Under the pieces are notes generated by a model. It did no database searches. It was not told the DNA's origin and saw only the letters and a list, made by a program, of their open reading frames with translations. From Polynucleobacter sp. AP-Melu-500A-A1 (GTDB lineage Bacteria; Pseudomonadota; Gammaproteobacteria; Burkholderiales; Burkholderiaceae), in contig NZ_JACVOZ010000003.1 in the NCBI RefSeq assembly GCF_018882125.1, positions 248,001-312,000 of the forward strand: 64,000 nt of DNA. Reading direction: 5' to 3'. Every line of letters begins with the position of its first letter. Position 1 is the stretch's first letter. A program made the position numbers and the translations under genes. Below, piece by piece: positions 52,282 to 58,929 of the stretch.

Positions 52282-53286
52282 TTAAAACGGCTTCAATAGG
52301 ACTTTTGCGGCAGCAGTTTTTCCGGCATGCAAGTCACTAAAGGCCTGAGGGCCTTCATCTAAAGATCTCTTCTCAACCCAAGCTAAGTTACCAAAAGCGC
52401 TTCGTGCCAGCAAATTGACGGTCGCTTGTAAATCTACGGTGGAATAGGTGTAGGTGCCTAATAGCGTAATTTCAGCAAGTGTTAATTTACGCATGTCAAT
52501 TTCGCTAGCCCAATCTTGAAGACCTACGTGCATCATGACACCACCCGGCTTCACTGCAGCCAATGCTGTGTTTCGAGTCACTACAGCGCCCACACAGTCC
52601 ATTACAAACTCATAGGAATTCTCAGCCATTTTTTCATTAATGGGGTTGATTGTTTTACAGCCAACATACTTTTCAATTGCATTTCTACGCAAGGGATTCA
52701 CTTCAGCCACAGTTAAATCATCTACTCCATAATACTTTAAAAGTAGCGCAGATAACATGCCAATTGCCCCACCCCCCAGTATCAAGACACGACATTCTTG
52801 AATGGGTCTTTGAAGAGCACGCATCGATAAATTAATAGCATGTACAGCGGTAGCTGCAGGCTCAGTTAAGGCAGCTGCATCAAGACTGAGACCTTCTGGT
52901 ATTGCGATCAGTGAGCTTGCAGGAATACTCATATATTGCGCAAATGCTCCAGGCCTTGTCATGCCCACCATAGTGCGATTGGCACATAAATTATTTCTAC
53001 CCTGCAAACAATAATCACAATGTCCGCAAGTAATGAGGGGGTTGCCTGTAACACGCTGTCCCTTGGTAAAAAGTGAAGAGCTGGTGTCGGCTACAGTTCC
53101 AGCAAACTCATGCCCAAGAACTAAGCCTGGTTTTCTTCTAGGGTCATGACCATGAAATGCATGCATATCACTTCCGCAAATTCCCACTGATTCAATCTTC
53201 AAAACTACTTCATCGTGATCTAATGAGGGATAAGGTCGATCTTGAACTTGCATTTCATTCGGTTGTGTATAAACCAGGGCTTTCAT
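52282..53286 (-). CDS. Zinc-dependent medium-chain alcohol dehydrogenase, HpsO/HpsP-like candidate
   Basis: The 334-residue enzyme has the MDR fold. The catalytic zinc site includes Cys in VGICGSDMHAFHGHD and Glu in GHEFAGTV; the structural zinc site has four Cys in CGHCDYCLQGRNNLC. The NAD-binding motif ILGGGAIGMLSALLLK is near residue 172. Such enzymes oxidise secondary alcohols of polyols (for example sorbitol or threonine). With the adjacent SDR and HisD-family enzymes it matches the three-dehydrogenase set HpsN/O/P of DHPS degradation, where two members oxidise and re-reduce the C2 hydroxyl. The assignment is by context. Confidence 0.82.
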   Translation of the reverse strand: MKALVYTQPNEMQVQDRPYPSLDHDEVVLKIESVGICGSDMHAFHGHDPRRKPGLVLGHEFAGTVADTSSSLFTKGQRVTGNPLITCGHCDYCLQGRNNLCANRTMVGMTRPGAFAQYMSIPASSLIAIPEGLSLDAAALTEPAATAVHAINLSMRALQRPIQECRVLILGGGAIGMLSALLLKYYGVDDLTVAEVNPLRRNAIEKYVGCKTINPINEKMAENSYEFVMDCVGAVVTRNTALAAVKPGGVMMHVGLQDWASEIDMRKLTLAEITLLGTYTYSTVDLQATVNLLARSAFGNLAWVEKRSLDEGPQAFSDLHAGKTAAAKVLLKPF

Positions 53287-53297
53287 ATTTACGATCC

Positions 53298-54071
53298 TTA
53301 TAGTGCGGTGTAACCGCCATCGAGCATGATGGTTTGCCCAGTGATGTAAGTAGACGCATCACTAGCCAAAAAGACCGCTAATCCATGTATATCGTTCATC
53401 TGACCATTACGCCCAATAGCCGTTCTTTCTGCGTGCATTTTGACAAGCGCAGGGTTACTAAACACTGGTACCGTCAGTGCGGTCGGAAAATATCCAGGAC
53501 CAATCGCATTACAGGTAATGCCAAACTTGGACCATTCTTGCGCAATGGCATGGGTTAACTGCACGATCCCGCCTTTGGCTGCACCATAGGGTGCGCTATT
53601 AGCAAAGGCACGATAGCTTTGCAGTGATGCAATATTAATCACCCTGCCCCAATGGCGCTCTTTCATTTGTGGAGCCAATGCTTGCGTCATAAAAAATGGA
53701 GCAGCTAACTGCACATTCAATTGCTCTTGCCAGCTTTGTGGAGATACCTCGCCAAACGGCTCTCGTAAATTCATACCTGCAGCGTTAACTAGGATATCTA
53801 CTTTGCCTAACTGGCTTAACACTCGCTTTGATAAGTTTTGAGCTTGATCTAACTCGCTCAAATCAGCCGCAAAAAAAGAAGCCTTAATCCCCTGAGAACT
53901 CAATCTTCCAACAGCTTCTTCCAAGGGGCCCTCTCTGCGAGCAGCCAGCGCCACTTCTGCCCCTGCTAAACCGAGTGCTAGTGCAATCTCCCCACCTAAG
54001 CCACTGCTGCCGCCGGTAATAAGCGCAGTCTTACCTTGCAAATTAAAGAGTTGATGAATAATTGGACTCAT
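53298..54071 (-). CDS. Short-chain dehydrogenase/reductase, HpsO/HpsP-like candidate
   Basis: The 257-residue enzyme has the classical SDR features: cofactor motif TGGSSGLGGEIA near residue 20, NAAG near 92, the catalytic Ser (INIASLQSYRAF) and YxxxK (PYGAAKGG) near 157, and the C-terminal SDASTYITGQTIMLDGGY. The presence of Ala-Arg after the glycine motif (ALAARREG) suggests NADP preference is possible. It overlaps the HisD-like gene by four bases and is 11 bases from the zinc dehydrogenase, so the three are one unit. Confidence 0.85.
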   Translation of the reverse strand: MSPIIHQLFNLQGKTALITGGSSGLGGEIALALGLAGAEVALAARREGPLEEAVGRLSSQGIKASFFAADLSELDQAQNLSKRVLSQLGKVDILVNAAGMNLREPFGEVSPQSWQEQLNVQLAAPFFMTQALAPQMKERHWGRVINIASLQSYRAFANSAPYGAAKGGIVQLTHAIAQEWSKFGITCNAIGPGYFPTALTVPVFSNPALVKMHAERTAIGRNGQMNDIHGLAVFLASDASTYITGQTIMLDGGYTAL

Positions 54072-57357: not shown

Positions 57358-58143
57358 TCACACTTCTTTATAGTGAATAGCGAACTTTTCAGCCTGCCTT
57401 AAAAGCACATCAATCAATAGACCAACTAGACCAATGGCAATCATGCCACTCATCACAATATCAGTCTGAATACTAGCCTGACCCTTAACCATCATGTAAC
57501 CAACACCACTTGAAGCAACAATGAGTTCAGCCCCTACTAAAGATTGCCAGCCCAAGCCAGCAGAAATCCTGAGTCCGGCAATGATTGATGGAATGGATGC
57601 GGGAAACAACACCTCCGTCATCAAACGTAACTTACCTGCACCAAGCATTCTGGCAGCTTCGAGATACTTTTGATCAACATGAATCGCGCCCCGATAGGTA
57701 TTAATGAGGACTGGGGGAAATGCGCCCATAAAGATTACCAGTATTGGGCCACCAATGCCCGTACCGAACCAGAGCGCAGCAAATGGCACCCAAGCAATTG
57801 GCGCAACAAAGCGAATACTTTCAAAAAATGGCGTAAATAGCCGATTGGCGTATTTAGATAAAGCCATTAATAAGCCTAGAGGTACGCCAATTACTACTGC
57901 TAATAGAAAGCCATATAAAAAACGCTGGAAGCTCGAGGCGATGTGCACTAATAAGGTGTAACCAGAAAATGGCTCCTTGAGTAGCTGAATAAATTTGATT
58001 AGCACTTCATGTGGGGGTGGTAAAAATTGTTTAGGCACCACACCAAGTAGTACAAAGAGGTACCAAAAGCTAACAAAGCTGGTGATACCTAAACCGGTCC
58101 ACAATATAAACTGACCCTGATTTAAGCGTTCTTGATGGACCAT
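57358..58143 (-). CDS. Sulfonate/taurine-type ABC transporter permease 2
   Basis: The 261-residue permease has six hydrophobic helices and the EAA loop EAARMLGAGKLRLMTEVLFP that docks on the ATPase. The ATG at 58143 overlaps the stop of the first permease gene (TGATG) and has GGAGAG upstream; the frame opens four codons earlier at a TTG. Two different permease genes imply a heterodimeric channel, whereas SsuC and TauC usually act as homodimers. Confidence 0.9.
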   Translation of the reverse strand: MVHQERLNQGQFILWTGLGITSFVSFWYLFVLLGVVPKQFLPPPHEVLIKFIQLLKEPFSGYTLLVHIASSFQRFLYGFLLAVVIGVPLGLLMALSKYANRLFTPFFESIRFVAPIAWVPFAALWFGTGIGGPILVIFMGAFPPVLINTYRGAIHVDQKYLEAARMLGAGKLRLMTEVLFPASIPSIIAGLRISAGLGWQSLVGAELIVASSGVGYMMVKGQASIQTDIVMSGMIAIGLVGLLIDVLLRQAEKFAIHYKEV

Positions 58144-58862
58144 CAAGCTCTCCAAGGCATTGCGTGGCGCTCAGCTTTAGCCAGTATCTGTGTCATTAAC
58201 CAACCTGAAATGGCAACACTGATCATGCCGACCAAAATCATTGCCGGATTAATATCCTGCGCAGCCTGATTCAGAATTGATCCCAAACCTAAGGTTGCCC
58301 CCACCAATTCAGCAGCGACTAATGTAGTCCATGAGGCTTGAAGTGAGAGGCGCAAGCCAGTAAAAATGAGTGGTAGTGCCCCTGGTATTAATACTTCACG
58401 ATAGTAAGCAAAGCGGCTGATACCTAACATGGCAGCAGCTTCACGCTGAGGTACTTCAATTGATCTGACACCTGTATAAGTATTAATTACTGACGGTACA
58501 AATGCAGCAACAAAAATTACCATGATCTTTGCAGAATTTCCTAAACCCAACCAAACAATTGCTAAGGGGATCCAAGCTAAGGGTGGTATTGGTCTCAAGG
58601 TTAAAAATATCGGATTGACAAATGCTTCGATTTTCTTATTAGCACCCATCAGAATGCCAAGCAAGATTCCCAAAGAAGAAGACACTAAAAATCCTGCAGT
58701 AACGAGAATGATGCTCTGTAAAATATGCTGATACAGCTTGCCATTGCCATAACCCTGCAAGGCAATAATTTTGAAAGAATTCCAAGTTTCCGTAGGCGAT
58801 GGAAATCTTGCGCTCGAGATGGTGCCCGTCCACTCCGTGAGTCCAAACCACACCAGAAGCAA
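58143..58862 (-). CDS. Sulfonate/taurine-type ABC transporter permease 1, N-terminus disrupted or misread
   Basis: The 239-residue frame has the SsuC-type membrane pattern and EAA loop EAAAMLGISRFAYYREVLIP. The only usual start codon in frame is a TTG at 58862, inside what should be the first membrane helix. The same frame continues upstream without a start as LEILSKLLSFFLFCSIL to a stop at about 58922. An ATG at 58918 (MG) is out of frame by one base; adding one base near 58911-58912 would give a normal permease N-terminus. It could be a real frameshift, an error in the assembly, or a rare start codon. Confidence 0.75.
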   Translation of the reverse strand: MLLVWFGLTEWTGTISSARFPSPTETWNSFKIIALQGYGNGKLYQHILQSIILVTAGFLVSSSLGILLGILMGANKKIEAFVNPIFLTLRPIPPLAWIPLAIVWLGLGNSAKIMVIFVAAFVPSVINTYTGVRSIEVPQREAAAMLGISRFAYYREVLIPGALPLIFTGLRLSLQASWTTLVAAELVGATLGLGSILNQAAQDINPAMILVGMISVAISGWLMTQILAKAERHAMPWRA

Positions 58863-58929
58863 AATTGAACAAAACAGAAAGAAGGATAAAAGCTTGCTTA
58901 AAATTTCTAATTCCCCATAGGGCTAATGG

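What the first reader, a model, noticed from the sequence alone, without database searches (positions are those of the whole stretch)
52282..58918. Candidate DHPS (dihydroxypropanesulfonate) uptake and oxidation cluster with an ABC importer
Three adjacent dehydrogenases of different families (HisD-like, SDR, zinc MDR) lie next to a sulfonate-type ABC importer. The HpsNOP system of Cupriavidus pinatubonensis likewise has three NAD(P)-coupled dehydrogenases, with HpsN in the HisD family, to turn both DHPS enantiomers into sulfolactate. The HisD-like protein keeps all zinc and catalytic residues yet has no histidine-gene neighbours. Known DHPS loci use an MFS or TRAP importer, so an ABC importer would be a variant. 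This is an inference from family and context; no desulfonating enzyme is in the window.
Basis: partly seen in the sequence, partly recalled or inferred. Interest (0 to 1): 0.75.

Follow-up and report, generated by a model that had tools for sequence, protein, structure and literature searches.

The report
DHPS oxidation island lacking known desulfonase
A freshwater Polynucleobacter bacterium carries genes to import and oxidise the algal sulfonate DHPS through an ABC-type importer, but unlike its sister species it seems to have lost the known enzyme that then splits off the sulfur, so the fate of the sulfur is an open, testable question.

Summary
The HisD-like protein is an HpsN: 78% identical to Cupriavidus pinatubonensis HpsN, with the GRYAH motif and all named zinc and catalytic residues. 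The SDR and zinc MDR keep the HpsO and HpsP active-site residues. The importer's binding protein is closest in fold to TauA/SsuA. ABC importers are common here: of 80 HpsN loci, 37 have this ABC, 14 an MFS, 13 a TRAP, 16 none detected, and none has two. The island is larger than reported (44.8-60.3 kb) and includes SlcC- and ComC-like dehydrogenases and a YeiH-type exporter. What is unusual is what is missing. Sister species hold suyAB, a GntR gene and a LacI repressor with a perfect operator in the same chromosomal slot. The window has none of these genes, its operator is degenerate, and its genome (99.99% complete) gives no SuyB, Xsc, CuyA-type or SsuD match over cut-off. A divergent slcC-comC pair and a symporter-cyclase block lie there instead. 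Either oxidation stops at sulfolactate/sulfopyruvate, or an unknown desulfonase acts. A suyAB lost in an assembly gap, or a decaying cluster, is not excluded.

The parts
44803..45810 (-). ComC-like sulfolactate dehydrogenase (Ldh_2)
   Evidence: PF02615; NF040650 is the best NCBIfam model but at 200.8 of 500 bits; best solved match is 1wtj, the solved L-sulfolactate dehydrogenase 2x06 comes second; lies beside suyAB in relatives
45810..46745 (-). SlcC-like (S)-sulfolactate dehydrogenase, divergent type
   Evidence: PF02826/PF00389; relatives named (S)-sulfolactate dehydrogenase by JGI; at most 73% to any other of 185 genus genomes
46832..47824 (-). TctC/Bug-type solute-binding protein
   Evidence: PF03401
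47817..49961 (-). adenylate/guanylate cyclase, weak dCache match
   Evidence: PF00211 over cut-off; dCache_1 21.2 of 45 bits
49988..51319 (-). SDF (DctA-type) symporter
   Evidence: PF00375; no match at E<=1e-60 in the other 185 genus or 397 family genomes searched
51316..52272 (-). family-3 solute-binding protein
   Evidence: PF00497
52282..53286 (-). hpsP, zinc MDR
   Evidence: 60% to C. pinatubonensis HpsP; His59, Glu60 and the Glu139 equivalent (E142) kept
53298..54071 (-). hpsO, SDR
   Evidence: 63% to C. pinatubonensis HpsO; Ser, Gln, Tyr, Lys kept
54068..55420 (-). hpsN, DHPS 3-dehydrogenase
   Evidence: 78% to C. pinatubonensis HpsN; GRYAH motif and zinc/catalytic residues
55462..56541 (-). 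ABC importer binding protein, TauA/SsuA-like
   Evidence: TIGR01728 125.5 of 163.5 bits; model and fold search
56557..57357 (-). ABC importer ATPase
   Evidence: 66% to the Paracoccus ferrooxidans ATPase of a locus with hpsNOP and suyAB
57358..58155 (-). ABC importer permease 1
58143..58862 (-). ABC importer permease 2 (start unsure, frame open to 58910)
58932..58945 (-). degenerate LacI-type operator, TGATAACGCCCACA
   Evidence: aligned to TGAAAGCGCTTACA of 11 of 11 relatives, 4 mismatches; not among the matches with up to 3 mismatches in the window
59068..59247 (-). remnant of a small ORF that lies between fdx and LacI in relative G114
   Evidence: 60 aa at 73% identity
59291..60283 (-). YeiH-family putative exporter (SuyZ-like)
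   Evidence: PF03601 over cut-off; TIGR00698 154 of 232.6 bits; follows suyAB-GntR in 6 of 9 relatives

Best explanation
This is an hpsNOP-type island for import and oxidation of DHPS in a Polynucleobacter, of common descent with the complete DHPS-to-sulfite island of sister species but without the desulfonation step. Proposed working: the TauA/SsuA-like ABC importer brings in DHPS; HpsN oxidises R-DHPS to R-sulfolactate; HpsO and HpsP handle the two enantiomers (by racemisation in the C. pinatubonensis scheme, via sulfolactaldehyde in the Roseobacter work); the SlcC- and ComC-like dehydrogenases interconvert S- and R-sulfolactate through sulfopyruvate. In sister species SuyAB then releases sulfite and pyruvate. 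Here suyAB, the neighbouring GntR gene, the LacI repressor gene and its operator are gone, and a divergent slcC-comC pair with a symporter-cyclase block lies in their place. The cluster probably escapes HpsR-type control and most likely yields NADH plus sulfolactate or sulfopyruvate, which leaves the cell or is used by an unidentified route. Shown by sequence: family membership, active-site residues, synteny, no match to the known lyases. Inferred: importer substrate, loss of control, fate of sulfolactate.
For: HpsN: 78.2% to C. pinatubonensis HpsN; 780.8 bits to solved sulfopropanediol 3-dehydrogenase against 235 for the best HisD; residues; tree. HpsO/HpsP residues and solved relatives. Importer: fold; one importer type per locus in 80 loci; same ABC with hpsNOP, suyAB, slcC, comC and exporter in two Paracoccus plasmids. 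Missing step: SuyB in 24 of 29 HpsN-bearing genus genomes, not in the own genome; suyAB, GntR and LacI in the same slot of 9 of 9 relatives read across; operator; Xsc, CuyA-type, SsuD not found over cut-off. dN/dS against G103 0.019-0.054 for hpsNOP and the binding protein.
Against: No biochemistry. The binding protein misses the SsuA cut-off. The ComC-like protein is far under the L-sulfolactate dehydrogenase cut-off and its best solved match is another enzyme. The genome has 10 contigs, so a gap could hide suyAB. Loss of control and of suyAB may be recent, with the cluster starting to decay: dN to outgroup G114 is higher in the window than in G103 for the ATPase (0.048 v 0.026) and permeases (0.066 v 0.040; 0.052 v 0.038), though nearly equal for HpsN (0.047 v 0.042) and HpsP (0.072 v 0.068). 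A retained YeiH-type exporter would fit sulfite release.
Confidence: 0.75

Rival explanations
1. Complete DHPS mineralisation with a desulfonase not yet known, acting on sulfolactate or sulfopyruvate and encoded elsewhere in the genome.
For: hpsNOP and the binding protein stay under strong purifying selection; a YeiH-type exporter is kept, 91% to G103. In PMC11382572, 242 of 272 HpsN organisms had a SuyAB, CuyA or Xsc route (sum of the classes in section 13), so by my arithmetic 30 had none.
Against: No candidate enzyme was found: TPP enzymes are not Xsc by cut-off, the only SuyB-family protein is galactarate-dehydratase-like and also present in relatives that have suyB.
Confidence: 0.2
2. suyAB exists in the organism but fell into an assembly gap.
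For: 10 contigs; SuyB is the rule in HpsN-bearing relatives.
Against: 99.99% completeness; the slot where relatives keep suyAB is unbroken here, with 30 bases between the ComC-like gene and the next gene; native-type slcC is absent too (one SlcC match).
Confidence: 0.12
3. A decaying cluster: suyAB and regulators were lost recently and hpsNOP with the importer is on its way out.
For: Loss of LacI, GntR, suyAB and operator together; ORF remnant at 59068-59247; faster change in ATPase and permeases.
Against: The 13 genes from YeiH to ComC are open; dN/dS is low and active-site residues are intact.
Confidence: 0.15
4. The trio and importer act on another small polyol or sulfonate, not DHPS.
For: The binding protein, SDR and MDR do not reach the cut-off of any specific NCBIfam model shown; the substrate cannot be read from sequence alone.
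Against: HpsN identity and the sulfonate-recognising His of GRYAH; the trio stays together beside three different importer types; suyB within the fetched flanks of 26 of 80 loci, a lower bound.
Confidence: 0.05

Closest known systems
hpsRNOUP-suyAB cluster of Cupriavidus pinatubonensis (described for JMP134; strain HN-2 compared here, L012)
   Same: HpsN 78%, HpsO 63%, HpsP 60%
   Different: MFS importer HpsU and suyAB in Cupriavidus; here an ABC importer and no suyAB
hpsR-KLM-NOP of Ruegeria pomeroyi (passages of PMC4334477 and PMC10130141)
   Same: HpsN, HpsO, HpsP trio
   Different: TRAP importer, supported by mutants; LacI regulator kept
Island of sister Polynucleobacter species (G103, G067, G114 and others)
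   Same: Same slot, same ABC importer and hpsNOP, HpsN 92-95% in these three
   Different: They keep LacI, operator, suyAB and GntR, and have another slcC-comC type
Paracoccus ferrooxidans pFER3 and P. versutus pTAV3 loci (L013, L220)
   Same: ABC importer, hpsNOP, slcC, comC, exporter; importer 52-66%
   Different: suyAB, LacI and GntR present, complete TctABC transporter

Membership tests
HpsN (DHPS 3-dehydrogenase) | GRYAH motif with the sulfonate-binding His126 (PMC11382572) | tested here: met
   GRYAH in the window and in 80 of 80 related loci
HpsN (DHPS 3-dehydrogenase) | Zinc and catalytic residues Gln248, His251, Glu318, His319, Asp352, His411 | tested here: met
   All kept: Q262, H265, E332, H333, D366, H425 of the window protein
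HpsN (DHPS 3-dehydrogenase) | Groups with HpsN, apart from HisD | tested here: met
   quick tree of 86 rows with long HisD branches; scores
HpsN (DHPS 3-dehydrogenase) | Oxidises R-DHPS to R-sulfolactate | not testable with these tools
   needs enzyme assay
Biosynthetic HisD | Higher similarity to HisD than to HpsN | tested here: not met
   235 against 780.8 bits; TIGR00069 hisD does score over its cut-off (423.9 of 243.8 bits), as the model does not tell the two apart
HpsO | Ser145, Gln147, Tyr158, Lys162 (PMC11131964) | tested here: met
   S149, Q151, Y162, K166; solved HpsO 8wwf 245 bits, second to SDR 9pvq 336.5
HpsP | His59, Glu60, Glu139 (PMC11131964) | tested here: met
   H59, E60, E142, assigned by alignment to HpsP of L012 and L013, the solved protein itself not aligned; 8wwd is the only solved match at E<=1e-40, its identity with DsHpsP is my inference
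SsuA-type sulfonate binding protein (TIGR01728) | Curated cut-off of 163.5 bits | tested here: not met
   125.5 bits, best of the 5 models matched
TauA/SsuA-like sulfonate importer, by fold | Closest fold TauA/SsuA | tested here: met
SuyAB branch of the DHPS pathway | suyA and suyB in the genome | tested here: not met
   Only a 31% galactarate-dehydratase-like match
Xsc branch | Xsc over its cut-off | tested here: not met
   Best 322.3 of 676.4 bits
CuyA branch | CuyA-type PLP lyase (TIGR01275 used as stand-in) | tested here: not met
   One match, 40.3 of 289.4 bits
SlcC/ComC sulfolactate racemase pair | Orthology to the characterised Chromohalobacter enzymes | tested here: inconclusive
   Right families and place but characterised sequences not compared; NF040650 cut-off not reached

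The most novel reading that the evidence does not exclude
A freshwater Polynucleobacter lineage oxidises DHPS without any of the three known sulfolyases: either it is a partial oxidiser that takes the reducing power of DHPS, free of HpsR control, and hands sulfolactate or sulfopyruvate to its neighbours, or it uses an undiscovered carbon-sulfur lyase.
Probability: 0.55. Interest if true: 0.65.

Novelty: new variant of a known kind. Interest (0 to 1): 0.5.

Why it matters
DHPS is an abundant algal sulfonate and Polynucleobacter is common freshwater plankton. The comparison finds HpsN in 29 of 186 Polynucleobacter-type genus genomes, shows that a TauA/SsuA-like ABC importer is a frequent partner of hpsNOP, and offers a natural experiment: a species with the oxidation half of the pathway but apparently not the desulfonation half. 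Comparing it with a sister that keeps suyAB would show whether some bacteria only oxidise DHPS and pass sulfolactate on, or would expose a new desulfonase.

Tried and rejected
Biosynthetic HisD was rejected for the HisD-like protein. Nitrate, bicarbonate and pyrimidine carriers score below TauA/SsuA but share the fold. The 518-aa SuyB-family protein (L003) was considered as a fused SuyAB and rejected: its only NCBIfam hit is galactarate dehydratase TIGR03248, 373.6 of 730.85 bits, under that cut-off too, and relatives that have suyB also carry it. The acetolactate-synthase-like TPP enzymes were considered as Xsc or a sulfopyruvate decarboxylase: no support. Sulfur-source use through SsuD: no TIGR03565 match in the own genome; TauD and other monooxygenases were not searched. 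A suy-linked SorA-like sulfite dehydrogenase (from G103) was tested as a marker: a copy at 81% or more is in 12 of the 29 HpsN-bearing genomes, not in the own one, but it is also missing from suyAB-bearing sisters such as G104 and G114, and the own genome has a 41-49% paralog, so it decides nothing. A plasmid search for kin of the symporter gave identities under 30% in the 12 rows shown (of 51 records).

G025 also lacks SuyB, but its island is cut by a contig end after slcC; G026, G136 and G178 are 74-83% complete. So only the own genome shows the loss with an unbroken island. Branch dS values are saturated or negative and were not used; pairwise dS near 1.5 is itself near saturation. Literature: searches gave no paper whose read passages name an ABC importer for DHPS, and one search found no paper holding both Polynucleobacter and sulfolactate; I opened passages or sections of nine papers only, supplements were not seen, the library is open-licence only, and one relevant 2021 paper was not held.
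Full report
What is there. The window is C5:248001-312000 of a 2.29-Mb genome in 10 contigs, 99.99% complete. Its closest named relatives by HpsN are Polynucleobacter strains. Around them lie a ComC-like Ldh_2 dehydrogenase, an SlcC-like 2-hydroxyacid dehydrogenase, a TctC protein, a cyclase, an SDF symporter and a family-3 binding protein on one side, and a YeiH-family exporter on the other. 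All run on the minus strand from 60283 down to 44803, between fdx-hscAB and a ferredoxin-reductase-like gene.

Identity of the enzymes. HpsN is 78.2% identical to HpsN of Cupriavidus pinatubonensis HN-2, the only one of 380 plasmid records above 60%, and scores 780.8 bits with solved sulfopropanediol 3-dehydrogenase against 235 for the best HisD. It keeps the GRYAH motif that PMC11382572 (outline, sections 1 and 2.8, passages) gives as the HpsN signature, and the zinc and catalytic residues named there. The motif is GRYAH in 80 of 80 related loci. In a quick tree of 86 rows it lies within the Polynucleobacter HpsN branch, the two HisD rows apart on long branches. HpsO and HpsP keep the residues that PMC11131964 (outline, sections 21, 22 part 1 of 2, 23, passages) tested by mutation; solved relatives include HpsO 8wwf and Zn-dehydrogenase 8wwd.

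The importer. The binding protein falls short of the SsuA family cut-off. Its AlphaFold model (mean pLDDT 88.3) is nearest TauA and SsuA, with bicarbonate, nitrate and pyrimidine carriers below. Among the 80 best HpsN loci of GTDB genomes (529 relatives found, 80 kept), 37 have this ABC, 14 an MFS, 13 a TRAP and 16 none by my identity thresholds within 6 kb; 12 of those 16 have under 4 kb on one side, and one of the rest (L117) has a TRAP binding protein further off. No locus has two types. MFS HpsU and TRAP HpsKLM are the described DHPS importers. That one type stands in for another supports the ABC doing the same job. Two Paracoccus plasmids carry ABC, hpsNOP, suyAB, slcC, comC and exporter in one locus.

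What is missing. HpsN occurs in 29 of 186 genus genomes. Of these 29, 24 hold SuyB at 71% identity or more, two of them as fragments. The other five are the own genome, G025 (island cut by a contig end) and G026, G136 and G178 (74-83% complete). SuyB is also in 9 of 19 HpsN-free genomes searched alongside (of 157 HpsN-free in all). In the nine relatives read across the slot after fdx holds LacI, the ABC and hpsNOP, then other genes, then comC, suyA, suyB, GntR (9 of 9), slcC before comC (7 of 9) and YeiH after GntR (6 of 9). The window has no LacI, suyA, suyB or GntR there. PF04295, Xsc, CuyA-type and SsuD searches of the own genome gave nothing over cut-off but a galactarate-dehydratase-like protein.

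Lost control. TGAAAGCGCTTACA stands before the permease in 11 of 11 aligned relatives; the window reads TGATAACGCCCACA there. Within 3 mismatches the window has 9 matches, none at this place, 8.4 expected by chance; one lies just inside the start of hpsN. The core AAGCGCTT is within 300 bases upstream in 26 of 34 ABC loci and 19 of 44 others, against 0.026 expected from its frequency in these loci (rows overlap with the 11). Repressor and operator are gone together, which fits release from control; that is inference.

What replaced it. Against G103 the window has HpsN 95%, HpsO 85%, HpsP 93%, binding protein 94%, ATPase 93%, YeiH 91%, but SlcC 71% and ComC 78%, where G103, G067 and G114 share 94-97% for these two. 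No other of 185 genus genomes has an SlcC above 73%. The window SlcC groups with 19 database proteins at 86-99%, 16 of them with a stated jgi, ena or lgn source and none with an organism name (fasttree). The symporter has no match at E<=1e-60 in 185 other genus or 397 other family genomes, and 84-93% kin only in such database proteins. G+C there is 38-42%, against 43-47% in most of hpsNOP and the importer. An SDF symporter at 21-25% identity also stands with suyAB in four Caballeronia/Paraburkholderia loci, so a role in sulfolactate transport is possible.

Selection. dN/dS against G103 is 0.019-0.054 for hpsNOP and the binding protein, in the range seen between relatives; dS is near saturation. 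dN to outgroup G114 is nearly equal in window and G103 for HpsN, HpsO and HpsP, and 1.4-1.8 times higher in the window for ATPase and permeases. When suyAB was lost cannot be told.

Interpretation. Uptake and oxidation of DHPS is the best reading; its end is open: partial oxidation with sulfolactate or sulfopyruvate leaving the cell, an unknown desulfonase, decay, or an assembly gap. In PMC11382572 the classes of section 2.8 sum to 242 of 272 HpsN organisms with a known sulfolyase, leaving 30 by my arithmetic, so such genomes are not unique. PMC13372026 (outline, passages) sees a Burkholderiaceae as a likely secondary user of DHPS and sulfolactate; PMC11089705 (passages) reports hpsN and suyAB expression in freshwater blooms. 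Polynucleobacter is not named in the main text of PMC11382572 or PMC13372026.

Noticed in passing
window 47817-52272: Family-3 binding protein, SDF symporter and cyclase in a row, of lower G+C and absent (symporter) from 185 other genus and 397 other family genomes: an acquired block of unknown role.
   Followed up: partly
L080, L082, L116, L120: An SDF symporter (21-25% to the window's) lies with suyAB in Caballeronia and Paraburkholderia loci, possibly a sulfolactate transporter.
   Followed up: no
L052 (G179:C14:6465-7730): A second HpsN-like protein, only 50% identical, in one relative that also has a normal HpsN; it branches outside the other HpsN rows.
   Followed up: no
L164:1964-3749: SorA-like molybdopterin oxidoreductase and a cytochrome c gene within the G103 island, likely sulfite dehydrogenase.
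   Followed up: partly
G067 island (L165-L166), about 26.7-28.3 kb of the joined stretch: A TPP enzyme of acetolactate-synthase look beside a FAD-linked oxidase-like gene inside the sister island; role unknown (named by eye).
   Followed up: no
window 59068-59247: Remnant of a small ORF that is intact (141 aa) between fdx and LacI in G114.
   Followed up: no
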